Shown here one piece after another: positions 1,309-56,400 of a stretch of 64,000 bases of DNA (positions are counted from its first letter, which is position 1; each line of letters opens with the position of its first letter). The notes beneath the pieces are model-generated. The model searched no databases and was not told the DNA's origin. It saw only the letters and a list, made by a program, of their open reading frames with translations. The translations under genes were made by a program, and so were the position numbers. This DNA is from Trichobilharzia szidati (lineage: Eukaryota > Platyhelminthes > Trematoda > Strigeidida > Schistosomatidae). Location of the stretch: contig OX235277.1 of assembly GCA_944472155.2 (NCBI GenBank), positions 24,190,804 through 24,254,803 of the forward strand. Direction: 5' to 3'.

Positions 1309-1323
1309 GATCTGCTCCAAAAC
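1309..1323 (+). CDS. Putative 15-base micro-exon 2
   Basis: GATCTGCTCCAAAAC follows ccctttag and precedes gtgagttgggcc. Phase 1 reads x-S-A-P-K, matching the pentapeptide pattern of the 7-15 kb array, and the intron start resembles those of the other 15-base exons. Confidence 0.6.
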
Positions 1324-1896: not shown

Positions 1897-1911
1897 AGTC
1901 TAATTTCAATA
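1897..1911 (+). CDS. Putative 15-base micro-exon 3 (divergent)
   Basis: AGTCTAATTTCAATA follows cttatcattttag and precedes gtgagt. Phase 1 reads x-S-N-F-N with no stop. Length and signals match the array but the sequence does not resemble the A-K pentapeptide, so chance is possible. Confidence 0.4.
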
Positions 1912-2084
1912 GTGAGTTTAGGATTGATTAGAATTACAGTGTTACTTTATCAATTACCGTAGAATAGTAAAAGTAATAAACTTCTAACTCGAATGTTTGA
2001 AATAATGCTGATTAAAGCCTGATTAAAATTTTGGCCTAACGAAAATCTTCGTTTTTATTTTGCATTGAATTTCTCTGCTACACT

Positions 2085-2226
2085 ACCTACGCACACCCGA
2101 TATCTATGGTTGGCCTGTAAAATTTGGGCTACCGATATTCATGCTGAAAATGTCATACTTGTACTGAGAATACGGTGTGGCATCAAGCTGTAACCAAAAT
2201 AAAAAATAAAATAAAATAAAAAAATA
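2085..2226 (+). repeat. tRNA-derived SINE (family C), 3' part with A-rich tail
   Basis: It shares with 2803-2968 the sequence cctgtaaaatttgggctaccg and the end catcaagctgtaac, followed by an A-rich tail (aaaataaaat units). The tRNA-like head is missing, so it is 5'-truncated. Confidence 0.6.
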
Positions 2227-2568
2227 GTCTGCTGACAAATATGACCTCTAATTAATGGTATTGTTTACTCGTGCGAGTAGTTCAAATGTTTACATCCTCC
2301 TGAATTACAAGTTTCTACTAAGTTTGAAAAAATGCATAATCTTGGGTGGCAACATTTCCCAATAAACACAAAGATAGGTAGTGGTACTATTCTAGAAGTA
2401 TTTCAGATCAAAGGGCAAATTTAAAAAATCCTACTTTTCAGTAGTTGGTTTGTAAGGACTAGATTTGTTTTTAACGAGTTGAACACGGATGGATATCAGT
2501 TAGAGGATTATTGAAAAACAAGTTTCTGACCCATATAGAAGAAATGACTTTTTGATGATGTTGAAAAT

Positions 2569-2715
2569 CCAGTGGCTGAGTGGTATACGAGCTCGCTTTG
2601 TCACTGAAAGGGGTGAGTACTGTCTATGACTCCCAAACTAGGATGAAACAGCTGTCCAGTACTCCTTGCTGGTTTTCAATGCTTCTCTAACTGATATCTA
2701 TCCGTGATCAACGTG
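2569..2715 (+). repeat. Sm-alpha-like SINE, plus strand
   Basis: It starts with the tRNA-like ccagtggctgagtggtatac and continues through the family's ggatgaaacagctgtccagtactcc to ctgatatctatccgtgatcaac. The first half of the hammerhead core is lost (tgtctatgactccc in its place), leaving GAAAC. A short inverted piece of the same family lies just upstream at about 2440-2520. Confidence 0.7.
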
Positions 2716-2802
2716 TAGAAAACTTTACAATGTTTAGTAGTTTTGAATTTTACTTTTGAGTTTGCTTTTGCTTTAGTAATTAATTCACTATTTGTGCTTT
2801 AG

Positions 2803-2968
2803 TGGCGCAGCGGTTAGGACGCTCGCCGACCATGCACATGGTCCGGGATTAGATCCCCTGCCGATGCATTTGTCGGCCTGAAAAAATTCGGGCTACTGAT
2901 TTCACATGCTAAGAATCCCATACTTGTACCAAAAATATGTGTAGAATCAAGCTGTAATAAAAAAATCA
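2803..2968 (+). repeat. tRNA-derived SINE (family C), near complete
   Basis: The head (agtggcgcagcggttaggac, an A-box-like stretch, and gggattagatcccctgccga, B-box-like) resembles a tRNA. The body reads ggcctgaaaaaattcgggctactg and the end is caagctgtaataaaaaaa. Sister copies are at 2085-2226 (+) and 22370-22535 (-). Confidence 0.7.
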
Positions 2969-3640
2969 CTCTCATATGTTCCTTTTGTACATTTTCACAC
3001 CCTCTTCACAATGGTTAAATTGACACTCACTCAATAACGATTTTTAGATCATGTAAATTATGTAATTACGTAATTTCGCCTCTAAAGCCACTTCTGAGTA
3101 ATTATGTATTATTACATATTGTAAATTTTTTTAATTTGACCTTTGACCTGAGATAATTCTGGAACTTTCTCACACATTCCCCAGTAAATTAGATATATGT
3201 TCATTGGGTCTCGAAATGTACTCTTGAACATTTCACAGATGACTTTCAAATAAATGCTATATGCTACCCCTGCTGGCCTCATCAATGTGTATCCACTAAT
3301 TCACCTGCTCGTGTTGAGCCAGGTATGTTGGCCGTACCCATCGTTCGCTATCCACAAGTATCATCGAACACTTAGCAGCACGGTTTTACAAAGGGGAAAA
3401 ACGATGCCCGCATGACTGTATCTTAGAACATCTGATAGACTCCGGACACCAAGCTACAACCCAAAAAAAACTTCAAAGTCGTCTACAGAACGCGAAGCAG
3501 TCTTCCTGAAAGTGTACGAGGCAGACTTCTTCAAACTGCAGAAGCAATGACAATTCACTTCCTAGGTCCTGAGCTTTGCATATAGAAGTTCGTTCAATCA
3601 CTACACTTGCAATGGAAGTAATCTGTCTTAATACCCGACA
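2967..3640 (+). mobile_element. Penelope-like element, compact copy: pLTR arm plus endonuclease tail
   Basis: Bases 2967-3120 match the pLTR-like arm also seen near 41.7 and 52.7 kb (catatgttccttttgtacatttt...). Bases 3300-3610 read, across frameshifts and stops, as the end of the PLE endonuclease: an intact-looking TPDTKLQ-FKVVYRTR stretch, then LLQTAEAM-IHFLGPELCI. The RT is absent. It is a dead fragment in the + direction. Confidence 0.65.
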
Positions 3641-3899
3641 GGTATTCTTTCTGCCTCTTCATTAGTATCATTTTGTCTTTACAATTGTAATATTTTACAT
3701 TTTCAACTTTACTGATCTCTAACCCCACCAGATTTAATTTCTACACCTCATTACCACTGTTTCTGACTTGACCAACGCTTGATTTCTAGTCATTTATGTT
3801 ACGTCATCCAATTTGTCTGCTCACTTCTAGCCCTAATCTAGTGCTTTTTTTTCAACTTCTGTTTCTTCTTTACATTTGCGTATTGAAAATTTTCAAAAG

Positions 3900-3911
3900 C
3901 TCCACCAATGC
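3900..3911 (+). CDS. Putative 12-base micro-exon 4
   Basis: CTCCACCAATGC follows a pyrimidine-rich stretch ending ttttcaaaag and precedes gtgagt. Phase 1 reads x-P-P-M. It could also be a decayed 15-base unit whose acceptor has mutated, because tttcaaaagctcc aligns loosely with tttagaaaatgct of the array. Confidence 0.45.
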
Positions 3912-4179
3912 GTGAGTTAAAAAAATATTATTCCATTCTTATTTTTTCCAGATATTGCGCCCTATGTGATACTGTTTAACTGATTCGATATTTTCACGCA
4001 TGTCTCTATCGTTTTTTAGAAATTCCTCTTGCACGTAAGATATTAATGCATTTGTATAATCATCTTTCTTTGAATCAAGTTTAAATAAAAATTGAACCGA
4101 AAAATAGTCACGAATGAAATGCGGTGAAAAAATTTTTTTGATGAAATAAATTAAGAAGTCAACAATCTATTAGTTTGAA

Positions 4180-4735
4180 TTATTTATTATCATTCACTCT
4201 GAATTCCTAATGGAACAAAGAGCTTAAACAATATATCCCCTGTTTCGTCCGATTCTCCGCGATCCTCTTCAACCGGTCACACAAATACCAAAAACCTTGC
4301 ACCTACTCTTCACTGTTAGACTCATGCATAACTCGTCTTTTCCATGCGATTTCATCCAATGACCTGCTCAACGTATGCTCAGTCCATTTCCAACTTCTTC
4401 GTCATATTCATTAAGGAACAGCTGCTTCATTGGTCCGTTCGTTTCCGGATGTTCTTGTTGCTGAGTCTCTCTGGCCAGCTGGTCACCTCATCTTCAGTAA
4501 GGAGCTAGTGAAGGCACTTCTTGATGCAAGTCTGTTTTTTGTGATGCGCCAAGTCTCTGGCCCATGTAGAGGAAATGACTTAACGTTGGTGCTGAATTCA
4601 GAGTGATAAATATCTGTCTTGCCTCTCTGATTCTAGTTTTAACATCCTATCCGCAAAGCTTGTTTTTCGCAGAAACGATGTTGCCTAGAAACGTGAAGTG
4701 ACCGCTTTCAAATTTCTTCTGCTGACGCTGCCTGA
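4180..4735 (-). mobile_element. RTE-like non-LTR retrotransposon, 3' tail
   Basis: The minus strand carries the decayed 3' end of the family best seen at 10.98-12.36 and 49.29-49.74 kb: the stretch after the RT that normally encodes a W-R-W-I-G-H-x-L-R-R region and ends in AEAL-C-S-x-R-N. Here it is broken by many stops. A 5'-truncated insertion is usual for this type of element. Confidence 0.55.
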
Positions 4736-4744
4736 TAATTGTTG

Positions 4745-6690
4745 TTGCAGCATATAGAAAATCAAAACAAATGATTCAGAGAAGAGACTCTTTTCAACAA
4801 CGAATTTGTTATCAAGCTGTACAATCGTATATATATATATATGTTTTTTAAGAACTTATATCCGGTGAGGGAACTGAATCATAGGTGTGAATGCATCAAA
4901 TGATAATAGTGGTATGAAATGCAGTTAAAATGGTTTTAATTATAAATGTCAGTTAGCAAAACAATTATTGTCATATAGAGAATAATTCATAGGATGGGTA
5001 GAACTTGGAAAGGGGTATGAAATTATAAGTTTAGTAGAGAAATCGCATAAAATAAAAACGCCATGTAATATTGTGTGAAATTTGATAACATAGAATTTCA
5101 CGTTGCAAAACAGAATTGATTTAGAATGACAAGTGGAACGAGTGAAATAATAACGGGGACAATTCAAAGTGAGAATAGTAGTAGTAACAATTGACGTAAT
5201 AAAGGAAGAGTATACAAATTGAATAGACAAAACGAGAAAAATTGGTAGAGCTAAAATATGATTAGGGATTACCATACTTTAGCATAGAGGGATTAAGACC
5301 ATGAAGGTTGGAGGGGTTGAACGAACGTTTTCTGTACGCAGAGATCTAGCTTCTCTGTTTCGATAGCCAAAACTTCAGCAATACAGATGGTTCAGGTACG
5401 TAGGGATTTGGCTAGAATACTTTTCACCTTGTAGATGACTTTATAGGTGGAGGCTGTAGAGATAGGGTGATCATTATCGACTAGATGTTCAATGATCGTG
5501 CTTCTTATTGCTCCAAGTTCACCTCTTCATAACCATGCAGGTTAGTGTTCTTTCATTCTCTTGAACAAAACTCGAGTCAAACGACCGATATACTTTGCTC
5601 CACACAAGTAGGTGAATTGATAAACGCATATAGAGTCGGTCAACAGCGGTATCATGTCCTTCATGTTATGAAACAGTAATGGTCGACTGGTAAAGTTTAT
5701 TCTCAGAGATGCAACAGGGAATGTGCTTTTCAGGGACTGTGATATCCTTCGTTTCATGATATTGGAAGCTAAGTCCCCTTTGAATTCCAAGCTCATGTAC
5801 AATATTTTCTTGAGTGCGGATGATAAGTCACATTTCATAGGACTTGAGTGTATTTTCCTGTCCATAAAACGTGGTGGAAATCCATTTTCTATTAAGATTT
5901 TCCCCAAAAGATTTAACTTGTACTCCTTATTATCACGGATACATATTCACCGAATGCGAGTGGCGAGTGACCAGATCAGGTTTCGTTTTCGACCATTGGT
6001 TACCCAGCTGTAGAAATTTGTCAGTTGATCATTCCATGACAACTTTCGATAAATCGATCTCGTCAGAGTTCCATCGGTCCTCCTTGATAAGTTCACATCG
6101 AGGAAATGAGAACTAGACTCGTTCTCCATTTCGAATGTGAGTTTTATCGCTAGATGGCAACCATTAAATACATCTGAAATACTATTCAAATTACAATCAC
6201 TATTAAAAATAATAAAGGTGTCATCTACATACCTTTTATACATTTGAAAGCTTTGGATTTTTGACTTCAACTGACCATTTTCTAGACCGGCCATACAACA
6301 GTCTGCAAGGAGAGGACCCAGAGGAGAACCCATTGCAGTACCATCTTTCTATCTGTAGATTTTTTTACTGAAAGTAAACTGTACATTCAAAGCACATCTC
6401 AAAAGTAGTTCTTTCAGATCTGTAGTGGCTATCTCTATATTTACTTTGTTATCTTCATTATATTTGCATATAAACCATATGGTTTCTGTCAGTGAAACGT
6501 TTGTTAATATGGATTCCATGTCCAAAGACAACATATGTTTATTCGAAGCATTTGTATCCTGTATACATCCAACGAATTGGAAGGTGTCACGAAAGGAATG
6601 ATTAGATAGTTGTCCCCTGACGGGTTCGAGGATTTCAGCTAACCATCCAGCTACTGAATGATAAGGTTGTTGTCTCACCTATGTTCACTT
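4745..6690 (-). mobile_element. Penelope-like element with RT and GIY-YIG parts, decayed
   Basis: This is one of the longest PLE copies here. Reading on the minus strand from 6690 down: an RT N-terminal stretch (6349-6678), then MGSPLGPLLADCC (about 6300) and YVDDTF (about 6220), the RT catalytic region; then at 5542-5907 a C-terminal segment with YLCGAKYIGRL, the GIY-YIG start. Frameshifts separate the parts. The distal arm 4745-5280 is nearly identical to the arms of the unit at 29.66-31.07 kb (ctcttttcaac...gaagagac, tatatccggtgaggga). The RT uses the catalytic aspartates of YVDD. No inverted partner arm was found on the upstream side. Confidence 0.8.
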
Positions 6691-6960
6691 GAAGTCCTGT
6701 CTTCATTGCCTCATTTTATTTTGCCAAATTGTTGTTTCCCGCCTGTAAGTCTTTCATTTTGTGTGAGACTAGATTAAAATCGCGCAGGAAGTCCACACCT
6801 TCCAGAGTCTTATCTTCTTACAAACTGTCGAGGTCCTCATGCTACGTTTTGCTTTCATCGAAAGAAGACATATCGGCTGACTAACTTTCCTGAGGCTTTC
6901 ACCAGCCCACATAATTCCCTCTTTTCCTGTGCTTACAATCTGATAGAAAACTAGCAAAAT
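6690..6960 (-). mobile_element. Possible RTE-like fragment
   Basis: Minus-strand sequence around 6740-6830 resembles the RTE segment near 14.24-14.34 kb (cgcctgtaagtcttt...tgtgtgaga...agattaa, ...gtcttat). The part at 6850-6930 (cgaaagaagacatatcggctgactaac) recurs near 34.33 kb. Too decayed for a firm call. Confidence 0.35.
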
Positions 6961-7074
6961 GGGAAACTAGGCGAGGTTTTTGTAAGTTAACTATACTAGA
7001 TATTTACAGATGAGGTCATATCATGTGTAACCGAAGTAAACTTGTTTTATCTACACTCTCATATATGATTTCAG

Positions 7075-7089
7075 ACGTTCCTGCAACAG
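7075..7089 (+). CDS. Putative 15-base micro-exon 5
   Basis: ACGTTCCTGCAACAG lies between catatatgatttcag and gtgaga. Phase 1 reads x-V-P-A-T. Its last G plus the next exon's AA gives a Glu codon. Start of the dense array. Confidence 0.65.
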
Positions 7090-7444
7090 GTGAGATATAG
7101 ACCTTAATTTTTTGTATACTTATGGCAAAATGATGCAGTAAAACAGTATTTGGCCTTATAAAATTTGCATTTCCCCAATATCACTGCTTGACAAAACATC
7201 CCACGAACTTGTTAGTCCACAATAATCACCAACGCCATCTGTCTCCCACCTACACTACACAAATAATGGTTGACCTGTCCACCCCTACTTCATTCAGAAC
7301 ACGCCTATATATATGTTAAGATAAAATCATTTAAATCTAAGAAACAGTTAGATATGTTACATATATATTTAAGATGGAATCCGATAAAACCTGAGTTTCT
7401 AAATCTCCTTCAATCATATCTTTACACATATCATACTACTTTAG

Positions 7445-7459
7445 AAAATGCTGCAAAAC
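7445..7459 (+). CDS. Putative 15-base micro-exon 6
   Basis: AAAATGCTGCAAAAC lies between catactactttag and gtgagtctggcactg. Phase 1 reads x-N-A-A-K. The intron start aligns with that of exons 7 and 11. Confidence 0.7.
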
Positions 7460-7713
7460 GTGAGTCTGGCACTGATTCTCTATATCATTTCATAGAATGT
7501 TTGCCGGTGTGACACTCAGCCGAACACTCACTGAATACAGGAGTTTTTTTCTAACTGTGTTTGGAATGATTTTGTTATTTGAAATTAAATAATTGTGGGA
7601 GGTTAGTAGATGTGTGGCAAAAATTTCGAATAGACAAATGTCTGAAAATGAGATTAAAATGAATTTTGACTGAGGCAAATTTTAACCAACCGTATTTGCA
7701 CATACTATTTTAG

Positions 7714-7728
7714 AAGCTGTTGCGAAAG
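7714..7728 (+). CDS. Putative 15-base micro-exon 7
   Basis: AAGCTGTTGCGAAAG lies between catactattttag and gtgagttggacagtg. Phase 1 reads x-A-V-A-K; the codon shared with exon 6 is CAA (Gln). The acceptor region catacta repeats that of exon 6. Confidence 0.72.
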
Positions 7729-7794
7729 GTGAGTTGGACAGTGATTTGAACCTTCGTTTTTCTATACTTTTATTTAAAATGGATTAAACATAGA

Positions 7795-8180
7795 GAGTAA
7801 TACTTTGGTGAGGCGGTGAGTACTAGTTAAGTTAGGGGGTAAGTGAGTTCATAAAGTTGTGAGGCTATATCGGTGGGGATAGCCAGCACACGTGTTACGC
7901 ACGCAGGGCCATTGCCTTCCTCTTAAAGCTGTATTAAGTGCCATCAGTCCAAGAAGTTGTTTGACAGTTATTTTAAGCCATGTGGGGAGGTGTAGACCAC
8001 ATGGTTGGGGTCACAGGAACCCTGAGAACTAACGGTTTGAGACTATTAGTTTTACTGTTTGAAACCATTCTCAGTGGAGTAGACAAATTCACTCTTTGTA
8101 GTATTCTGGGTCCAGTGAACCCTCATATTTATATCCTTGTCACTCTCCTTTCTTCTGTATACTTCTTCTGATTATAATCC
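7795..8180 (+). mobile_element. RTE-like retrotransposon, 3' end fragment
   Basis: Translated with frameshifts, it reads VRLYRWG-PAHVLRTQGHCLP, then SHVGRCRPHGWGHRNP and an NHSQWSRQIHS stretch. This is the C-terminal tail typical of RTE-family ORF2 proteins (R-W-L-G-H-V-L-R-M, then CRLPGWGPRD and a W-x-R-x-I-H end). Only the last part is present; it sits in the intron between micro-exons 7 and 8. Confidence 0.65.
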
Positions 8181-8396
8181 TTTCGAATGCCTTTTTGTTT
8201 CTTTTCTTCACCTTTGAGTGTTAAATGCTAGGTGGTAGCTTGCACTGTTGCACTCATATTCTCTGAGTTCTCTGATGAGTTTTACTCAATTATTTTCTTT
8301 ATTAAATGGCGTGAATTACAGCTCGTGGCTATGTGATTTTTGTTTCAAAACTGAGCGAAGAAATGATGTTTATCTATATCGGTATATGCATTTTAG

Positions 8397-8411
8397 ATAT
8401 TGCCGACACAA
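8397..8411 (+). CDS. Putative 15-base micro-exon 8
   Basis: ATATTGCCGACACAA lies between tatgcattttag and gtgagttgataactg. Phase 1 reads x-I-A-D-T; the codon shared with exon 7 is GAT (Asp). Confidence 0.65.
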
Positions 8412-8539
8412 GTGAGTTGATAACTGGTTTGAGTCATAGTTCTCTCATATTTGTATCCTTAAAATGTTGTTTCTGATCATATTTAAGTGGAACATGTCGA
8501 AACATGCTGATGAATGAAATGCAGGAACATATTACAGTG

Positions 8540-9395
8540 TTACGAATTTTGTATTGCCTTTGCTTTCCCAGTGGAAAACAGGCGCTAAGTCAAATTCATA
8601 TCTACTGGTTGATATGAGTGGTACTCAACTACTCACTCACCCACGAATGTTTGATATGCGATTCCTTCTCGTCAAATGTTCGATGATGTTACAGGACTGG
8701 ACTAGAATAACTCCAAGCTTAGAAATAGGGAGTGAAGTGGTAAGGGAGAACGTTGACAGCTTCACTTATTTGGGAAGTTGCATCAACCAACGCCAACGGG
8801 TAGATCTCAGACGAAATCTCAACATGGATACAAAGGGCTAGTTTTGCATTTGCCAGTTTACGTCCACTCTCTAGCGTAGATGTAATATCCGGCTATCGAC
8901 CAAAGGGCGTGTGTACTGCTCATCAGTCTGTGAGGCCTGGCCATTGAGAGTGGAAGACAGAGACCAGCTGTCTTAATGATAGATGCCTGCGTTTTATCTC
9001 CCGTGTGAAGTGGTATAGTAGGGTGAGCAGTATTGAGGTAAGGCATCAGTTGGGTCCTAGGTAAGGAGGGGAAATCAATCGACGAGGCTGTGAAGCTACA
9101 TCGATTAAGATGGTTAAGACATGTATTACGTATGCCTAGTCATCGATTTCCTTGACAATGGGTAATGTTAGCTGACATAGGGTCAGGTTTGAAAAGAGCT
9201 AGTGGCGGTCAAACCAAAACATGGCACCAGTCAATGAAATAAATCCACAACAGTTAGTTTAAGCCACATAGGAAGGTGTAGACTTCCTGGTTGGGGTCCT
9301 CGGTGTTGTAGAACCAGTGGCTGGAAACAATCGGTGATATGGCTTAAAATCGTTCTCTATGGCTGGTGGAGATGCATCCACTCCTTGTGACTTAT
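8540..9395 (+). mobile_element. RTE-like retrotransposon, 3' third, decayed
   Basis: The + strand reads TRITPSLEIGSEVVRENVDSF then TYLGSCI at about 8700-8785, next the region near 9090-9180 giving KLHRLRWLRHVLRMPSHRFP, then GLKRASGGQTKTWHQSMK near 9190-9240 and a tail near 9360. These are the late RT/thumb and C-terminal blocks of RTE-family ORF2. Stops and frameshifts show it is dead. It is the same subfamily as 7795-8180 and distinct from the W-R-W-I-G-H subfamily elsewhere in the window. Confidence 0.8.
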
Positions 9396-9597
9396 AATTT
9401 CCAATGAAACTATATTGTTCTTCGTTAATATAATTCCTTTTGTCTCATATCCCCGTCTACTGTCTCTATTATGCATTTCTTCTACTTTCTTCTCTTGCCT
9501 TGTGTGCAAAGTTCTATGTGGAAAACAGACAGACAGACTCACTCCAAACAACCGGAAGTATATAAATTTATGCAAATCCTGGGCCTTGAATTTTCAG

Positions 9598-9775
9598 TAG
9601 CACTGGTGTTTTTTTACTGGGTGGAGTTTTCTGCCTCATATCTTACCTTACCTATTTACCGGGCTTATTACTGGCTGAGCGAGGTGTAGGGACGCGTCAG
9701 CCGGAAATAGAAACACCGGAGTACATGTGACGTGATTGGCGAGTATTCTGCCGCTGAACCACCGACGCACAGTGT
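9598..9775 (-). repeat. tRNA-derived SINE (family B), minus strand
   Basis: The reverse strand gives gtgcgtcggtggttcagcgg at the start and the family body (cctcgctcagccagtaataag). Complete-looking sister copies are at 21470-21705 and 57793-58030. The tail is degraded. Confidence 0.6.
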
Positions 9776-9859
9776 CACATTATTTTAAATAAACATGGAC
9801 CAGAAACTAGACAACCAATCAAACAAAATCCCTACAAAACTAATACATGAAAATTAACC

Positions 9860-10230
9860 TGATGCTAACCAGCAACTGGCCCTATTCAAGCAGTTACCTA
9901 AACTTCTCGTGGGTAGCCATGACCAGTAGGCTACAGAAGGTCGAAGGTGAGGACAGTTACTTATTGGAGACGACATTGTAAAGTGGTCGCACTATGTCAT
10001 GAATTGGCAGAAAATAGAATTGATGGGCTGGTCATTGGGTCGGGTCCCATTGGCCTTATGGTAGACGAGCTCATTTTGTAACCAAAAGATCCTCTGTTCG
10101 AACCCTGGCGGTGGGTGCGTACTGATGGAGAGTCTCAAAAACTAGGATGATGAAACAGCTGTCCAGTACTCCCTGTGGCTGGTTTTCCAGTAGCTCTCTT
10201 ACCAATGTCCTCTAACCAGTCAAACGAAAT
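9860..10230 (+). repeat. Sm-alpha-like SINE, near full length
   Basis: It has the whole family layout: a 5' block (actggccctattcaagcagtta ... gaattggcagaaaatagaatt), the tRNA-like block ending in the B-box ctgttcgaaccctgg, then gtactgatggagagtctc ... gatgaaacagctgtccagtact. The core CTGATGA has become CTGATGG, so cleavage is unlikely. The two-block head suggests the tRNA-like part is internal, not at the very 5' end. Confidence 0.75.
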
Positions 10231-10352
10231 CCCCACGAAACCACTACTTGAGAATAAATATGTGTTAGATCTGTTTCTTTGGCGAATAATATCGAATGCA
10301 ATTAGGTCAAGAAACGGTTTTTATTATTAACTGTATATATATATCATTTTAG

Positions 10353-10367
10353 AAATGGCTGTGTTAG
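10353..10367 (+). CDS. Putative 15-base micro-exon 9
   Basis: AAATGGCTGTGTTAG lies between tatatatcattttag and gtgagttgactg. Phase 1 reads x-M-A-V-L. Phase 0 would end in a TAG stop, so the stop-free reading supports phase 1. Confidence 0.65.
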   Translation, partial: KWLC

Positions 10368-10591
10368 GTGAGTTGACTGTTTGGTGTAGGGTCCCTTTTT
10401 GATTACATTCAACTGATTCTTTTCTAAACTGAATCAAATATAGTTGTGACGGAAGTGATCGCATAAATTTCAGATGTCTATTGGAATGAATTCTATATAG
10501 TGGTTGCAAAATATATTTTTTTCGACAAGATCTTGTGAAATATGTTTGGAGAAAAAATTGTTCATCCATATATGTATGTATATAATTTCAG

Positions 10592-10606
10592 AAACTTCTG
10601 CAAAAG
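10592..10606 (+). CDS. Putative 15-base micro-exon 10
   Basis: AAACTTCTGCAAAAG lies between tatataatttcag and gtgagcctgacaaat. Phase 1 reads x-T-S-A-K; the shared codon with exon 9 is GAA (Glu). Confidence 0.7.
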
Positions 10607-10744
10607 GTGAGCCTGACAAATATATATGAACTTTGATGTTTTGTTATACTGACCATCGAATTCCATTTTGTAACACAGTCTAAATATGAAATGTTTGGAA
10701 GTGATTGTGTTTAAAATGCAGGGAAACATATTTGTGTCATATAG

Positions 10745-10990
10745 ACCAACATGTCAATACTATTGTAGATAGACTTGTGCAAGACAACAGTGAACATTAT
10801 CTTGTCGGACTCTATACACAAGTCTCTACTTGCATGTCAACCGCTGAGATAAGAAACAATTATGAAAGACTTTATCCTCGGATGACTAAGTATAAAGACT
10901 CTGCAATACTTTGTTTGGCATACATTTTATATGATGAGAAAGATGTAAGGCACAACATTACCAAATTACTAAGAAATACCATTGACTTAA
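10745..10990 (+). CDS. Unrecognised coding segment ('TKYK' domain), possible larger exon
   Basis: An open frame runs through this stretch (ORF 10705-11097) and encodes LYPRMTKYKDSAILCLAY then ILYDEKDVRHNITKLL. It resembles, at protein level only, the segment at 40357-40512 (IYARTTKYKNSTVPYLAR, then VLCEETNIRKELLQLL). I do not recognise the domain. An acceptor catatttgtgtcatatag just before 10745 would join it in phase 1, the phase of the micro-exons. From about 10990 the sequence switches to a 5'-truncated RTE copy, so the natural end is not visible. It may be a real exon, or a pseudogene fragment joined to the RTE. Confidence 0.4.
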
Positions 10991-12362
10991 AGAGACTTAA
11001 GTCAATGCAAGAACTGGCGCGGAAGTATGCTCCTGTCCATCCCAAGCAAAATACTAAGCCGCATCATCCTGGAGAGAATCAAACATGCCCTGGATGAAAA
11101 ACTTCGACCGGAACAGACTGGATTCAGGAGAAACAAGTCATGCATTGATAAGATCGACACATTACGGATCATCATTGAACAAAGCTTGGAATGGCAGTCA
11201 CCTCTCTATCTCAACTTCATCGACTTTGAGAAGGCCTTTGACAGCGTCGATCGAGAGGTGATTTGGAAACTACTTCGCTACTACGGGGTGCCACCGACAA
11301 TTATACATCTCATCCAACAGCTGTACGACAATGCTGCATGCCAAGTAATCCACAACGGGAAACTTACGGAATCCTTCGAAGTGAGGACAGGAGTAAGACA
11401 AGGCTGCCTACTATCGTCAATGATTTTCTTGATTGCAGTAGACTGGATAATGCGACAAACAGCGGGCAATGAGGAAACAGGCATAAAATGGACACACACA
11501 AAAAGCTTGGAGAATCTGGACTTTGCCGATGATATATGTCTGATTTCCCACAAACAATGGAAAATATGCAAGTGAAAAGCAACAAGTTGGTAGAAGAAGC
11601 ATCAAAGATAGGAATTCACTTCAGGTGAACAAAGAGAAAACAGAGGTGATGAAGATTCCTGGGCAACACCACTAACAGCAACAACAACAACAGAAAACAA
11701 TCAGCGTAAATGGAAGGAACCTGAAAGAAGCAACCTCTTTTACCTACCTGGGAAGCATCGTTTCAACTACAGGCGGAATCGACGAGGATATCAAAGCAAG
11801 AATCGGAAAAGCAAGACAAGCTTTCACTACTCTCAAGTCTGTGTGGAGGTCAGCAGCACTCAGCATCAAAAATAAGATCCGGATTTTCAACTCCAGTGTG
11901 AAGTCAGTGCTACTATACGGATCAGAGACTTGCACTGCGCGTCATAAAGAGCATCTCAAACAAACTACAGACCTTCATTAACAGTTGTCTTCGCTCAATA
12001 TTCAAGATCAGATGAATGGCTAGAAAAGATCAGCAACAGAGATCTCTGAGAGCGAACCAACCAAGAACTGATTGTGAAACAAATAGGCAGGAAGAAATGG
12101 AGATGGATTGACCATACTCTGAGGTAACCATCAAGTGACATCACTAGACAAGCCATCGCTCGAGTGGAAACCGAAAGGGAAGCGGCGAGTTGGTCGTCAG
12201 TGTGAGGGTGACTTGGAGGAGGTCATGTGAAGAGGAGATGAAGGCGTGTGTGCAGACTTGAAGCCAGGTGAAGACTCTAGCGCAGAGCCGAACGCAATGG
12301 AGACGCACGGCTGAAGCCCTATGTTCCTCTAGGAATTAAAGGAAACAATAAGAAGAAGAAAT
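10984..12362 (+). mobile_element. RTE-like retrotransposon, RT domain to 3' end, 5'-truncated
   Basis: This is the best preserved RTE-like copy. The frame 11027-11575 (182 residues) carries RT motifs: ILERIKHALDEKLRPEQTG, NFIDFEKAFDSVDREVIWKL, RTGVRQGCLLSSMIFL and LDFADDICL with the catalytic FADD. After a frameshift the 3' part (11580-12330) has the YLGSIV region, R-K-W-R-W-I and the end AEALCSSRN. The RT copies its own RNA at a nicked site. The endonuclease is missing, as expected for a 5'-truncated insertion. It lies in the intron between micro-exons 10 and 11. Confidence 0.88.
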
Positions 12363-12454
12363 ACCAAGTAAACGACCATTTTCATATTTTCGTTCATAAT
12401 TTTTCAAGTATTGATTTTGTAGGGATTTTGTTTGATTGGATGGAGGATTTCATC

Positions 12455-12645
12455 ATGAGCTGACATTAGTGGCGTAATGGTCTACGAGCTCGCCTTCCAA
12501 CGAGAAGGTCCTGGGTTCAAACTCTGGTGAGTGCATAATGATCAAGAGTCCCAAGAGACTAGGACGAAACAGCTGTTCAGTACTCCCAGTTTTTCCAGTG
12601 GTTCTCTGACTGATGTCAGCTCATGATGAAATCCTCCATTCTTTC
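12455..12645 (+). repeat. Sm-alpha-like SINE, plus strand
   Basis: Contains agtggcgtaatggtctacgag (A-box area), tcctgggttcaaactctgg (B-box), and gagactaggacgaaacagctg with GAAAC intact, but aatgatca replaces CTGATGA. It ends gatgaaatcctcc. The 40 bases before it (gtagggattttgtttgattgg, ggaggatttcatcatgagctg) are the start of an inverted copy. Confidence 0.75.
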
Positions 12646-12689
12646 ATAAATGTATTATTTCGAGTTTTTCCGGTTGGATGTGGTTGCGT

Positions 12690-13000
12690 CTGAGTGACTT
12701 CCAATAATATTTCGAGTTCCACTATTTCGAGTTTGACAATTGAGTGAGGATACATACTCGCCATGGATGACATTGGGTGGTGGTCTCTCTGGTCGTCGAA
12801 CCGAGTCCCACTGGTTGAATCGCTCCCAAGCTTGCTTTGTAATCAGAAGGTCAAATTCTTTCAAGTAGGTTCGTACAGTTGAGTAGTTCAAAACTAGGAC
12901 AAAGCATCTGTTCAGTACTCCCTATTGGTTCCCGATGGTTCTCTCACTGATATCGATCAATGGTCGAATCAAATCCCTACAACCTAACTCTTGAAAATAC
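12690..13000 (+). repeat. Sm-alpha-like SINE, diverged
   Basis: Matches the family from the 5' block (gtgaggatacatactcgcc) through cccactggttgaatcgctcc and ggttcgtacag to actaggacaaagcatctgtt. Many changes, including loss of the first hammerhead half. Confidence 0.55.
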
Positions 13001-13320
13001 ATTATTGTCAATATTTCCACTTAAATTTTAATTTTACATTCGTATTCTTATTGACATTATTATTATCGATGTAAATGTCCTGGTAATTATTTCCCATCTT
13101 ACTATGTGATATACAGAGAAAACTAGATGCGATGTTAGATTACATACTGAAAATTCCACATTGTTTCAAAAGTACTATTTGGAATAAAGCCATTCATGCT
13201 TCTTCGTATTAGAATGAACTTGAAATATATACTAAAGTGCGTAAGATGTATTATCGGTGAAACCACATTAGGCATTGGCGATGAAATCATATTAATCTAT
13301 CTCTGTATCCATAATTTTAG

Positions 13321-13335
13321 AATCCACTGCGAAAC
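13321..13335 (+). CDS. Putative 15-base micro-exon 11
   Basis: AATCCACTGCGAAAC lies between tccataattttag and gtgagtcggacagtg. Phase 1 reads x-S-T-A-K; the codon shared with exon 10 is GAA (Glu). The following intron start is almost identical to that of exon 7. Confidence 0.72.
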
Positions 13336-13494
13336 GTGAGTCGGACAGTGGTGTGAATTGCATGTGATTCTGTTTATGATCTAGTTTACTAGTAACGTGA
13401 AGGCATTACTATAAAAGGAAATGAAGAGGAACAGATTATTTAGTAGCATAAAGTTAGATAATTCTGTAATGTCAGTAGAGATATTACTATCATA

Positions 13495-14935
13495 TATCGT
13501 TATTATTATTCCCTTGGGTTCCGAGGGGAACATAGGACTACACAGTACATCTCTACTTTCTTCTATTTTCTGCCGTCCTCTTCAACTGGGCCCGTGATTA
13601 TCTTTAGTCCCTCATCTCCTCCTCATTACACGATCTCCTTTATGTCACCCCTGGGACGACCCACTGGTCACATCTCATTGAGATTCCACGCGGGCAGTGG
13701 CCTGCATCGTGTGCTCAACCTAACTCCATTTTCTCCTATGTATTTGTTGAACAGTAGGTTCTTGGTTAGTTTGTTCCCAAACAGAATTTCTCGCTAATTC
13801 TATCTGTACAGCCATCCCGCTATTTGATCTTCAGTATGGAGCCAGCGAAGTGGGCAGCTGTTGACATAAGTTTGCAGCCTACTGAAAATCTTTTTCGTAA
13901 CACGCAGGGCAAGTATCTTACATGTATAGAAGGACCGACTTGTTCTTCATGCTGAGGAGTGAAGAATATTTCCAATCTGATCTCAGGTTGATGAAGGTTT
14001 ATCTCGCCTTTCAGATTCCAACTTTGACATCTTCATCCGTTCTGCCAGCTGTGGTTGAAACCATGATTCCTGGCTGGATAAGTGAAGGAAGCAATCTCTG
14101 TCGAATCTCTTTCGTTGATGGTGATTGGTGCTGGTTGTTCTTGCTGTTGGTTGGTTGATTCGTTGGTTATCTTCAAAACCTCCGTATTATTCTCTATGTT
14201 CGCTTGGAGGTCTATCTTCATTGGGTGCTTCCTCTGCCGGTTCTTTGCTTTTCGCCCGCCTGCAAGTCTTCGAATTTGTGTGACATTAACCATAAATTAT
14301 CCACACGAGAAATCCAGATCTTCTACAGTCTTCTTATCGATCAGTACAGCGTATTCCTGTCTTATCACTCTGTGTGCACAGTGTGACGCATAATCCAGTC
14401 CACTACAACTAAGAGTATCGCTGGTGATAATAGGCGGCCTTGCCTTACTCCCGCATTCACTTTGAACGCCTCACTGGGTTTTCCGTTGTGGATCACCTGA
14501 CATAAGGCATTGTCGTATAGCAACCTGTTCAATGAGGTTGGTATAAATTTGGGCAATTCACGCCATTGTGTTGAGGCAGTTTTCAAACCACTTCTCGGTC
14601 AACTCTGTCTGGTGAAAGCCTTTTCAAAGTTGATAAAGTTGAGCTAGAGGTTTAACTGCTATTTTATGCTTTGTCCGATGACGATGTGTAGATTTGCTAT
14701 TTGATCAACACATGATTTTCCTTTCTTGAATCCAGTTTGTTCCGGGTGGGGGAGGGGAGGAGTTCTGTATCCAGTGCATCTTTTATTCCCTCCAGGATGA
14801 TGAGATTTAGTACTTTTCTTAGCGTGGACAATAGCATAATTCCATGCCAGTTCTTGTTGAGACTTAAGTCGACCTTGTTTGCTAGCCTGACAAGGTGCGG
14901 AGCTATCGACCCTACCCCACAAAACCAAATAAACT
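13495..14935 (-). mobile_element. RTE-like retrotransposon, RT to 3' end, minus strand
   Basis: On the minus strand, starting near 14930: LKSQQELAWNYAIVHAK (out of frame with the RT), PEQTGFKKGKSCVDQIANL, then LYDNALCQVIHNGKPSEAF and VNAGVRQGRLLSPAILLVV at 14365-14586, and the later part near 14033-14293. The 3' tail ends near 13500 (cattccttgggttcc). Frames are broken. Same subfamily as 10984-12362. Confidence 0.85.
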
Positions 14936-14984
14936 GCTACAGAAACTTCGACGCATATTAAAAAAGATATTATGGACGTATTAG

Positions 14985-15425
14985 TATTCGTTCCTTGCCC
15001 TCTGAGGGGAACATGGAGCTTTAGTACCTCACTCCCATTGCACCCCGTCCTCTGCTATCTCCTTCCACAATCACCCAAAACTTTCATTTCCTGCTCAATT
15101 GATTCCCTCTATGTCACCTTTAAACATACAACCCATCACTTCCAATTCATATTATACTAGAGTGCCCATCTGGCGCGTGATGTCACTCAGTAGTCTCTTT
15201 AGCGTATGTCCAACTCATCCAAATCTACATATTTGTGGAGTAACAAGCTGTTCATTATTTTATTGCTAAGGTTTTTTATTGGTCATCCTTTCCAACAGGC
15301 TAGTATGACGAGAAGTCAGTTGTTGATGAATGTCTGCAACCTGTTGGAAATACTTTTTGATACAGCAAATATATTTAGTTATAAAAAAGAATTTCATACG
15401 AGGTCAGATGAAGTCTCGCCTTCCT
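14985..15425 (-). mobile_element. RTE-like retrotransposon, 3' tail, minus strand
   Basis: Repeats the 3' end of the element just upstream: ccctctgaggggaacatgg, then a TATGTCACC and TCCAACAGG area as in 13.5-13.9 kb. It is a separate, shorter insertion in the same orientation, ending about 25 bases before micro-exon 12. Confidence 0.65.
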
Positions 15426-15448
15426 CCTTTTCTTCACACGCATTTTAG

Positions 15449-15463
15449 AAGCTGCTAAGAAAG
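15449..15463 (+). CDS. Putative 15-base micro-exon 12
   Basis: AAGCTGCTAAGAAAG lies between cacacgcattttag and gtaagttgctcactg. Phase 1 reads x-A-A-K-K; the codon shared with exon 11 is CAA (Gln). Last unit of the dense array. Confidence 0.7.
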
Positions 15464-17325: not shown

Positions 17326-17525
17326 AAATTCAGGAATTTGAAGGTGATCATCTCTTTTCGAGTTATGTATGTAGACTGTTGAAGCCCTGTGTTATGCTTG
17401 CAGTCCAATGGGATAATAATATTAAACTTTTTTTCCATTTTTAGGGGATTTCTTCCCACGTATGTTGTCATTGACTTGAAAAATTAATGCATTGTAAATA
17501 AATTAGGTCAAATCTTAAAAGTTAC

Positions 17526-17878
17526 GTAATACTAAAGGTGAAGTGGACAGATAATCAGACTTTAAATAAATATCATAAAAATACGAATGAGACGGAAAAT
17601 AAGAGAAGACGGAAGGCACTTCAAAGTTACCTATCGCATTCTGTCGAGCGTTTCGAACGGAATTCGAATCCGTCTTTTACACATAGCCGAAGCTATGGGA
17701 ATTCGAGAGAACAATCGTCGTCTTTGCATACAAAAAAGTGTGTTCTACCTTTGTCTCTCCCTTGACCTAAGTGAATTCTATTCAAAACCCTCCCACCCTT
17801 CCTTATTTTACATCTCCTTTGTACTTTTATGATATTTATTTAAAGTCTGATTATCTGTCCACTTCACCTTTAGTATTA
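17526..17878 (+). mobile_element. Mini Penelope-like unit flanked by inverted repeats
   Basis: About 350 bases. The outer arms (17530-17575 and 17826-17875) are near-perfect reverse complements (taaaggtgaagtggacagat ... atctgtccacttcaccttta). Between them the + strand reads HFKVTYRILSSVSN, then IRIRLLHIAEAMGIRENN and RRLCIQKSVFYLCLSLDL, which is the end of the PLE endonuclease protein. A very short 5'-truncated PLE insertion. Confidence 0.75.
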
Positions 17879-17879
17879 C

Positions 17880-18690
17880 ATAAATTTTGTTATTCGTATC
17901 GCCACCTGCATAAACCTTATTATCAATATTTTGTTATCATTATAATCACCGTTATTAACTACGTTCAAAACATTTACCACAATACTATTATTATTACTAT
18001 TATTTGATCTACAAAATCACCGTCATTGGTTAAATATTTTTACATATAAATCTATGTAAATTAGAGTAAAGGCTGAAAAAGATCTAACTGAAAAAATATT
18101 GTTCGCCTATATATCTTGTTCTAACAGATTATTCATTATTCTAAGTTTCATGCTGAACGAACCTCAGTTAAAGAATTACTGAAAGCCAGGATGTACTGGA
18201 CATCTAGCTTTTGCGTCCTCCTTCGACACTCTCCAATGGTATGCACTCATAGTCTCACCAAAACCTTCAGGGCTTGCAGGGGGAGCTCGCTGAACACTAA
18301 ACCATTGAGACAGAATTCAGTAATAACTGAATGTGACCAGAGCATTTTCGTGCAGCACATGTATTTTACAACCACTTTTATACGAAACAAATCAATCATG
18401 TGACATTCACGGTCAAAACTCTAATAATAAATTATACTGTGAAGAAAAGCGACGATAAGCAACTATGGAAATGTAAACCATCCTGGATAATGCAATGAAA
18501 TCATGAACTGGTTTAAACAAAATGAAACCGTGTATTTCGCCAAAATAACTGATCACACCAGATCGAAACAGTGTTTGATGACAGAGAGAAATGAGAGGTG
18601 AATAATTTTACCATTATTTCAAGGAACTTGAATTTAATCATGGAGTGATGTGGTTTATATATCTCGACTACAGCAGTTTTGTGACTTTTA
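17880..18690. other. No gene recognised
   Basis: AT-rich sequence with short ATT runs (about 17935-18005). No element, exon candidate or coding signal seen. Confidence 0.4.
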
Positions 18691-27384: not shown

Positions 27385-27515
27385 AAATTCGAACCCCGGT
27401 GGGTGGGTGTGTACTAACGAAGAGTCCCAAAAGACTAGGACGAAACAGCTGCCCAGTACTACCAGCTGTTTTCCCAGTGCTTCTCCAACTGACGTCAGCT
27501 CACGCTGAAACCCTT
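27385..27515 (+). repeat. Sm-alpha-like SINE, 5'-truncated
   Basis: Starts inside the B-box (ttcgaaccccggtgggtggg) and runs gtactaacgaagagtccc ... actaggacgaaacagctgcc. GAAAC kept, CTGATGA lost. It lies just after an acceptor-like ttattttatttcag at 27355. Confidence 0.7.
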
Positions 27516-45229: not shown

Positions 45230-45600
45230 CTAGCGACTGGCCCTATTCAGGTAGGTAATTACCTGGGGTAACAGCGAGAAGCCGTGACCAGTAGCACACA
45301 GCTAGTCGAAGGTAAGGATGAATACTCGTCGAAGACATTGGCTAGTGTTAGAGCTATTTCGGGAATTGGCAGAAATTAGAATTCACGGGTTGGCCACTGA
45401 ATCGGGTCTCAGTGGCCTAGTGGTCTAGGATCTACCTTGCCTTGTAACCAGAAGGTCCTGGGTTCAAACCATGGTGGTGAGTGCGTACTGCTGAAGAGTT
45501 CGAAGTTAGGGCGAAACAACTGTCTAGTACTCTCAGGTTTTTAAATGGTTCTCTAACCGATTTTCGCTGATGATGAAATCACATAAACAATTGCAGAGTT
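45230..45600 (+). repeat. Sm-alpha-like SINE, full length, plus strand (right half of palindrome)
   Basis: actagcgactggccctattc (5' block), tcagtggcctagtggtctag, gggttcaaaccatggtg (B-box), gtactgctgaagagttcgaa, agggcgaaacaactgtctag. With 44830-45225 it makes an inverted repeat of about 770 bases. Confidence 0.8.
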
Positions 45601-53304: not shown

Positions 53305-53510
53305 ATTTGTAGGGATTTGGTTGATTGGTTACAGGATTTCATCATGAGCTGACATTGGTTAGAGAACTATTGGAAAAGCTGTGATTACTGGACAGCTGTT
53401 TCATCCTAGTTTGGGACTCTTCAGCAGTACGCTACCACCACTGTAGTTCGAACTCAGGACCTTCTGGTTACAAGGCCAGCAAGTTCGTTGACCATTAAGC
53501 CACTGGTACC
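53305..53510 (-). repeat. Sm-alpha-like SINE, minus strand
   Basis: gtagggatttggttgattgg, tttcatcatgagctgacatt, tggacagctgtttcatccta, gttcgaactcaggaccttct. Core CTGCTGA ... GAAAC. Inverted partner follows. Confidence 0.75.
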
Positions 53511-53559: not shown

Positions 53560-53775
53560 AGAATTGGCAGAAGTTAGAATTCATGTGCCATTGGTTCAGG
53601 TACCAGTAGCTTAATGGTCTACGAGATCGCCTTGTAACCAGAAAGTCCTGAGTTCGAACATCGGTGGTGGATGAGTACCGATGAAGAGTCCCAAACAAGG
53701 GTGAAACAGCCGTCCAGTACTCCCAGGTTTTCCAAGGGTTCTCCAGTCGATGTCAGCTCATGATGGAATCCTGTA
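53560..53775 (+). repeat. Sm-alpha-like SINE, plus strand
   Basis: agcttaatggtctacgagat, cctgagttcgaacatcggtg (B-box), gagtaccgatgaagagtccc, aagggtgaaacagccgtcc. CTGATGA is CCGATGA. Confidence 0.75.
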
Positions 53776-55984: not shown

Positions 55985-56400
55985 AACCCTTGAAAACACA
56001 TTAGTTTATCGAAATTTGAACCGGTGCTGTTTTTAAAATAATCTCTAATGGCGCCTTTTATATCGTTACTATTTAATTTATAATAATGTGAATGGAATTC
56101 ATATTGTAAAAGCAATAAGGTGAAATGCCATATACTTATGGTACATCGTGCAAACGATCTTAAGTCTCATAAGAACCCCAGCAATCATTGTTGGTATGCG
56201 AATCGGCGTAAGAGAATGAGGACTGAAACATGACAAAAATAGTGAGTCTTTGAAGGGAATTGGTGGATGGGAATTAGTAGTGGATGGAATCAAGGATGGG
56301 TATTTCGTCCTATTTGGGACTCGTCAGATATCGTTGAAGCATCCATACAAGGAGGTCGAACACTTCGGTCCAATCAATCAGCGTGAAAGTCTAAATTGAA
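55985..56400. other. No gene recognised
   Basis: AT-rich. A worn tRNA-like fragment may lie near 56290-56390 (gtcctatttgggactcgtca; cttcggtccaatcaatca), compare 59270-59620. Confidence 0.3.

What the first reader, a model, noticed from the sequence alone, without database searches (positions are those of the whole stretch)
7075..15463. Array of duplicated 15-base exons encoding a pentapeptide repeat one unit at a time
Eight 15-base segments (7075, 7445, 7714, 8397, 10353, 10592, 13321, 15449), plus 1309 upstream, share acceptor (..ttttag/ttcag), length, phase 1 and donor. Most encode x-(T/S/A/N)-(S/T/A/V)-A-K with the shared codon Glu, Gln, Asp or Lys. Skipping any unit would keep frame, so one locus could yield many protein lengths in steps of five residues. 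What is seen: sequence and signals. Known: schistosome micro-exon genes vary proteins this way. Inference: this array belongs to one.
Basis: partly seen in the sequence, partly recalled or inferred. Interest (0 to 1): 0.93.

Follow-up and report, generated by a model that had tools for sequence, protein, structure and literature searches.

The report
Serially duplicated 15-base exons in fluke
A fluke chromosome, probably from a bird schistosome, carries about ten tiny, related 15-base exon-like units in a row, each of which could be left out without upsetting the reading frame; this looks like one of the flatworms' known micro-exon genes and suggests that such a gene can grow by copying one tiny exon over and over.

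Summary
The array is real. All nine reported 15-base units lie where stated on the + strand, with AG acceptor, GT donor and phase 1 on both sides. A matrix trained on them adds a tenth at 1897 and a doubtful eleventh at 4020. TTTYAG-15-GTRAG gives 9 + strand hits, all among these eleven; 13 control combinations of strand and length give 0. Exon identity among the nine averages 57%, and 7 of 10 units share intron sequence to about +22: copies of one exon. All 45 in-order junctions are open. The genome is Trichobilharzia, probably T. szidati. As far as testable, this fits the middle of a micro-exon gene (MEG); T. szidati has MEG transcripts. No transcript of this locus was seen; end exons, signal peptide and family are unknown. 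MEGs, mostly 15-base exons, frame-preserving skipping and some exon duplication are in print. Added here: a likely bird-schistosome gene built by repeated duplication of one 15-base exon, where the residue at each join depends on the preceding exon. The stated pentapeptide fits 4 of 9 units, not most.

The parts
1309..1323 (+). 15-nt unit, codons 2-5 SAPK, ends in C
1897..1911 (+). 15-nt unit not in the finding, codons 2-5 SNFN, ends in A
   Evidence: matrix score 21.6 without training on it; donor and intron flank fit when held out
4020..4034 (+). possible 15-nt unit, codons 2-5 IPLA, ends in C; doubtful
   Evidence: score 12.6, within the chance range; passes TTTYAG-15-GTRAG; peptide
7075..7089 (+). 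15-nt unit, codons 2-5 VPAT, ends in G
   Evidence: weak when held out (9.6) and without the downstream intron similarity
7445..7459 (+). 15-nt unit, codons 2-5 NAAK, ends in C
7714..7728 (+). 15-nt unit, codons 2-5 AVAK, ends in G; reference copy of the repeat family
8397..8411 (+). 15-nt unit, codons 2-5 IADT, ends in A
10353..10367 (+). 15-nt unit, codons 2-5 MAVL, ends in G
   Evidence: without the downstream intron similarity
10592..10606 (+). 15-nt unit, codons 2-5 TSAK, ends in G
   Evidence: downstream intron similarity weak
13321..13335 (+). 15-nt unit, codons 2-5 STAK, ends in C
15449..15463 (+). 15-nt unit, codons 2-5 AAKK, ends in G; last unit found in the window
7729..7753 (+). 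intron start after unit 7714, the clearest copy of the shared downstream flank (+1 to about +22) that 7 of 10 units carry
5728..6811 (-). transposon remnant inside the long intron 1912-7074, with a weak reverse-transcriptase match (below Pfam's cut-off)
10973..12046 (+). reverse-transcriptase retrotransposon remnant inside the intron 10607-13320
13924..14927 (-). related retrotransposon remnant, opposite strand, inside the intron 13336-15448

Best explanation
This is the middle of a micro-exon gene (MEG) of a bird schistosome, Trichobilharzia, probably T. szidati, grown by serial duplication of one 15-base exon together with its splice sites and, still visible in seven of ten copies, about 20 bases of the following intron. 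SHOWN: ten related 15-base units on one strand, phase 1 at both ends, with consensus splice sites; every in-order combination of them is open. INFERRED: the + strand is transcribed; the spliceosome includes or skips single units; the product is a secreted or surface protein with a variable number of pentapeptides; transposon insertions enlarged some introns. Because the first codon of each unit is completed by the last base of whichever unit precedes it (C gives Gln/His, G gives Glu/Asp, A gives Lys/Asn), skipping removes five residues and can also change the residue at the new join.
For: Units and held-out tests; spacing control 9 against 0 in 13 control combinations; mean exon identity of the nine reported units 57% against 27% by chance, and no relative of another length in free-length scans, i.e. 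many substitutions and no length change seen; in-register intron similarity at +7 to +22 beats all 10,000 random registers; all 45 in-order junctions open, residues E15 Q13 K10 H3 N2 D2; transposon piece 97% identical to a T. szidati protein, another closest to T. regenti; MEGs described as mostly 15-bp exons with introns of 0.1-5 kb, and 10 MEG transcripts reported in T. szidati; 3 of 4 introns of 1.9 kb or more contain transposon-protein matches, 0 of 5 shorter ones, and MEG regions of S. mansoni are described as transposon-rich.
Against: No transcript of the locus was available. No first exon, signal peptide or last exon was identified in the window (first exon and exons up to 99 nt searched; a last exon was not searched for on its own). 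The open frame alone is weak evidence, since only 40 whole codons are involved. The fixed length of 15 and the AG/GT are partly built into the matrix. Three of ten units lack the downstream intron similarity. Pairwise pN/pS above 1 fits MEG-like change, but the matching column test is not significant, and a silent relaxed remnant would also lack purifying selection.
Confidence: 0.8

Rival explanations
1. The micro-exons belong to a gene that is not a MEG in the strict sense: a conventional secreted protein with a micro-exon tail (as SmVAL6) or another schistosomatid gene spliced by cassettes (as LEV1).
For: SmVAL6 has ordinary exons followed by small alternatively spliced ones; LEV1 has frame-preserving cassette exons and probable exon duplications. 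The gene ends were not found in the window.
Against: A run of ten predicted micro-exons with no other exon of up to 99 nt convincingly placed among them; longer exons were not searched systematically. Ten ORF pieces given to Pfam showed only transposon-type matches (3 of 10) or none (7 of 10), but they were chosen as likely transposon pieces.
Confidence: 0.1
2. A dead remnant: the array was once a micro-exon gene but is no longer transcribed or spliced.
For: Transposon matches in three introns; no sign of purifying selection between units; no transcript seen.
Against: The ten units keep AG and GT and an open frame, and no unit of changed length was found; drift would be expected to break some. 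This is partly a matter of how units were found, since broken ones would score low.
Confidence: 0.07
3. Chance splice-like sites or a dispersed repeat rather than exons.
For: The window is rich in repeats and transposons, and acceptor plus donor alone gives some non-unit pairs as strong as the weakest units.
Against: Same strand 10 of 10, confined to about 14 of 64 kb, no other position on either strand above the chance range of the full matrix; 0 matches in 13 control combinations.
Confidence: 0.03

Closest known systems
Schistosoma mansoni micro-exon genes (MEG families, notably MEG-1 and MEG-2 with several isoforms)
   Same: Exons mostly 15 bp, introns 0.1-5 kb; symmetric exons whose removal keeps the frame, transposon-rich loci.
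   Different: Here the 15-base exons are recognisable copies of one another. Whether that holds for MEG-1 or MEG-2 could not be checked: the founding papers are not held and no MEG sequence was compared.
MEG transcripts of Trichobilharzia szidati and T. regenti
   Same: Same genus; 10 and 4 MEG transcripts reported, some not close to known S. mansoni MEGs (passages seen).
   Different: Gene structures are not given in the passages seen; whether this locus is one of them is unknown.
MEG-26.2 and MEG-26.4 internal duplication; MEG-3.1 duplicated 9-bp exon
   Same: Exon duplication inside a MEG (passages).
   Different: There a repeated exon-length pattern or one extra 9-bp exon is described; here one exon type occurs about ten times.
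MEG-4 / antigen 10.3 tandem 81-base exons
   Same: Tandemly repeated exons coding a repeated peptide (title of a 1988 paper in a reference list; review passage).
   Different: 81-base units instead of 15-base ones.
SmVAL6 micro-exon tail
   Same: Small, alternatively spliced exons in a schistosome protein (passage).
   Different: VAL6 carries larger exons with conserved motifs; none was seen here.

Membership tests
Micro-exon gene (MEG), operational definition of PMC7653826 | Exons shorter than 70 nt and divisible by three | tested here: met
   10 of 10 predicted units are 15 nt; predicted, not seen as RNA, and length 15 is built into the matrix
[quoted passage not shown]
   Ten predicted units in a row, no other exon of up to 99 nt convincingly placed between them; prediction only
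Micro-exon gene (MEG), operational definition of PMC7653826 | At least seven exons, at least half of them micro-exons | tested here: inconclusive
   Ten micro-exons predicted; the remaining exons were not found in the window
Micro-exon gene (MEG) | Symmetric exons whose removal keeps the reading frame | tested here: met
   Phase 1 at both ends; 45 of 45 in-order junctions open; frame assigned from sequence only
Micro-exon gene (MEG) | Signal peptide on the first exon | tested here: inconclusive
   No candidate: the three hits are contiguous reads into known units; the first exon may lie left of the window
Micro-exon gene (MEG) | Transcripts that differ by skipped micro-exons | not testable with these tools
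   No RNA data on hand
A named MEG family | Protein similarity to that family | not tested
   Needs the predicted exons joined; step referred
SmVAL6-like gene | Venom-allergen-like domain exons beside the micro-exons | tested here: inconclusive
   No such domain in the ten ORF pieces given to Pfam, out of 112 stop-to-stop ORFs of 75 aa or more; the gene may extend left of the window

The most novel reading that the evidence does not exclude
The array is a splice-adjustable helical spacer: the seven units from 7445 on are proline-free, five of them end in Ala-Lys or Lys-Lys, and they resemble the helix-forming EAAAK pentapeptide (resemblance recalled, not tested). Including or skipping units would lengthen or shorten a rod by five residues and turn its far end, while the order-dependent junction codon (Glu, Gln or Lys) changes its charge pattern. 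One locus would tune both length and surface of a host-facing protein.
Probability: 0.1. Interest if true: 0.75.

Novelty: new member of a known kind. Interest (0 to 1): 0.45.

Why it matters
How micro-exon genes arise is open; [quoted passage not shown] If this locus is a living gene, it shows such duplication directly, with copied flanks still visible. It gives a concrete locus in a schistosome probably of birds to ask whether 15-base exons are skipped independently, and it implies a simple rule: the residue at each join is set by the last base of the preceding exon used. It also matters for annotation: MEGs are described as a challenge for gene finding, with reads that often fail to align (passage).

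Tried and rejected
Exons of other lengths in the same style: free scans of 6-99 nt with acceptor and donor and of 3-99 nt with the extended downstream flank gave no convincing micro-exon outside the 15-base class; most of the best non-15 hits reuse a unit's own acceptor or donor. In one search one non-unit pair (63903, 83 nt, stop in frame) scores 20.6, inside the range of the units (19.4-29.7), so those two signals alone do not separate the weakest units. A 12-base candidate near 3900 has a poor acceptor (AAG) and was dropped.

First exon: ATG, hydrophobic stretch and phase-1 donor gave 3 hits on + and 0 on -; two start at neighbouring ATGs and read straight through the acceptor of unit 8397, and one through that of 7075, so none is a first exon. 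A last exon was not searched for on its own.

Downstream intron similarity as a required splicing element: rejected as a general rule, because 7075, 10353 and 10592 lack it (6,758, 5,795 and 473 non-unit positions on both strands score higher when they are held out; the model includes the donor itself). Shared descent is simpler.

Longer duplicated flanks: positions +23 to +46 show a weaker in-register excess (p 0.021 with nine units, 0.002 with ten), but gapped local comparison up to 220 bases either side gave only marginal scores (best downstream 28 against a null maximum of 27; best upstream 30 against a null maximum of 37), so nothing firm is claimed beyond about +22.

Diversifying selection: pN/pS 1.41 (nine units) and 1.54 (ten) over four codons, bootstrap 5-95% 1.06-2.16 and 1.19-2.27, but third codon positions are not significantly more alike than other columns (0.12-0.30 of column choices do as well). 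Left as a hint.

No unit ends in T, which would make a stop before 8 of 10 units; not claimed as selection, since splice consensus already disfavours T there (recalled).

Tools that gave nothing: the genome search was unreachable five times; the 2010 and 2009 founding papers on MEGs are not held; the tandem repeat finder found nothing.
Full report
WHAT IS THERE. Nine 15-base segments were reported. All nine are at the stated places on the + strand, each between an AG acceptor in a T-rich context and a GTGAG/GTAAG donor. A position matrix over 10 bases of upstream intron, the exon and 22 bases of downstream intron was tested with each unit held out: in every case at most 9 of about 128,000 positions on both strands scored above the held-out unit, and the other eight units can account for eight of those. 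Held-out scores were 9.6 (7075), 16.1 (10353) and 25.1 to 47.4 for the other seven; the best scores of the full matrix in 20 Markov-1 random windows (one strand each) were 3.8 to 13.3, so 7075 is not above chance by score alone. The full matrix finds one further unit at 1897 (21.6) and a doubtful one at 4020 (12.6); the next position scores 11.2 (3897) and the best minus-strand position 8.7.

SPACING. TTTYAG-15 bases-GTRAG occurs nine times on the + strand: seven of the nine reported units, 1897 and 4020 (1309 and 7445 have CTTTAG). It occurs zero times on the - strand, and zero times on either strand at lengths 9, 12, 14, 16, 18 and 21: 0 in 13 control combinations. The looser YAG-15-GTRAG gives 13 on the + strand against 1 to 7 in those controls. 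Acceptor and donor scores alone, at free length, separate less well: units 19.4-29.7, one non-unit pair 20.6, best minus-strand pair 18.5.

PEPTIDES. Codons 2 to 5 of the ten units read SAPK, SNFN, VPAT, NAAK, AVAK, IADT, MAVL, TSAK, STAK, AAKK. Over all 45 in-order pairs of the ten units the junction residue is E 15, Q 13, K 10, H 3, N 2, D 2, never a stop. With ten units there are in principle 1,024 inclusion patterns. Skipping a unit therefore removes five residues and may also change the residue at the new join. That is arithmetic on the sequence; whether the worm uses it is not shown.

COMMON DESCENT. Mean pairwise exon identity of the nine reported units is 57% against 27% expected by chance. 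The matrix fixes the length at 15, but scans of free length found no relative of another length. Similarity does not stop at the splice sites: intron positions +7 to +22 and -12 to -6 are more alike in register than in any of 10,000 random registers; +23 to +46 show a weaker excess (p 0.021 with nine units, 0.002 with ten), and -30 to -13 none (p 0.44 and 0.21). A donor-plus-flank model with the unit held out places 7 of 10 units above all but at most 4 non-unit positions on both strands; 7075, 10353 and 10592 do not fit. So there may be two sub-groups. I read this as duplication of the exon with a short flank, or with more flank that has since decayed. Between units, replacement differences exceed silent ones (pN/pS 1.41 and 1.54 over four codons), but a column test is not significant.

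SETTING. Introns between the ten units are 224 to 5,163 bases long. Three of the four introns of 1.9 kb or more contain stretches matching transposon proteins, and none of the five shorter ones does; the query set was the 200 proteins found with two transposon pieces, so other elements could be missed. Of ten ORF pieces given to Pfam, two pass a curated cut-off (reverse transcriptase at 10991-11572, DUF6451 at 11676-11978), one has a reverse-transcriptase match below it (5950-6348), and seven have none. The window has only one stop-to-stop frame of 150 residues or more, the reverse transcriptase. Five type I hammerhead ribozymes lie at 27-56 kb.

SPECIES. A retrotransposon piece is 97% identical over 91% of its length to a Trichobilharzia szidati protein; among the 120 of 1,099 hits listed, the best named T. 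regenti and Heterobilharzia hits are 74% and 72%. A second piece is closest to T. regenti (74% over 72%), with T. szidati at 56%; a third was closest to an unnamed protein (57%), then Schistosoma guineensis 55% and T. regenti 47%. The genus Trichobilharzia is well supported; the species is probable only. Both species are bird schistosomes (passages).

MEMBERSHIP. Micro-exon genes are described as mostly 15-bp exons with introns of 0.1-5 kb (PMC10526429, parts 1-3 of 5 read), as mainly short symmetric exons, all with a signal peptide, in transposon-rich regions (PMC8293314, passages), and operationally as at least seven exons, half of them micro-exons below 70 nt and divisible by three, with a run of at least four (PMC7653826, passages). 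The features testable here are met as predictions; signal peptide, total exon count and transcripts are not established. Ten MEG transcripts are reported for T. szidati, some of the Trichobilharzia ones unlike S. mansoni MEGs (PMC6362228, passages); T. regenti has MEG-4 and MEG-8/9 relatives (PMC5825161, passages). I did not identify the family: that needs the exons joined, which I left out and referred.

HOW NEW. Exon duplication in MEGs is in print: an extra 9-bp exon of MEG-3.1 beside a transposon, an internal repeat of exon pattern in MEG-26, and 81-base tandem exons of antigen 10.3 (title in a reference list; review passage in PMC4015677). In my eight paper searches I saw, in the listed titles and abstract beginnings, nothing on a tenfold series of one 15-base exon or on such a gene in Trichobilharzia. 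That is weak: four of the listings were cut well short of the number found, the two founding papers are not held, and of ten papers opened I saw three of five parts of one, an outline and two sections of another (PMC10399815), and passages of eight. I file it as a new member of a known kind.

NOVEL READING. The likeness to EAAAK helix repeats is recalled, not tested. A splice-adjustable helical spacer is possible and unproven (probability 0.1).

Noticed in passing
27411-27459 +, 45485-45530 +, 53385-53430 -, 53675-53720 +, 56289-56329 -: Five type I hammerhead ribozyme matches above Rfam's gathering score, perhaps carried by repeats.
   Followed up: no
   Followed up: yes
10973-12046 + and 13924-14927 -: Two related retrotransposon remnants in opposite orientation in neighbouring introns; they form 73-78% complementary inverted repeats of 110-154 bases on either side of unit 13321, which might pair in a pre-mRNA.
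   Followed up: partly
17517-17616 and 17789-17888: Inverted repeat with 100-base arms, 87% complementary, 172 bases apart, about 2 kb downstream of the last unit.
   Followed up: no
7075, 10353, 10592: These three units lack the downstream intron similarity of the others; two of them (7075, 10592) also have a TTTCAG acceptor, suggesting a second sub-group.
   Followed up: partly
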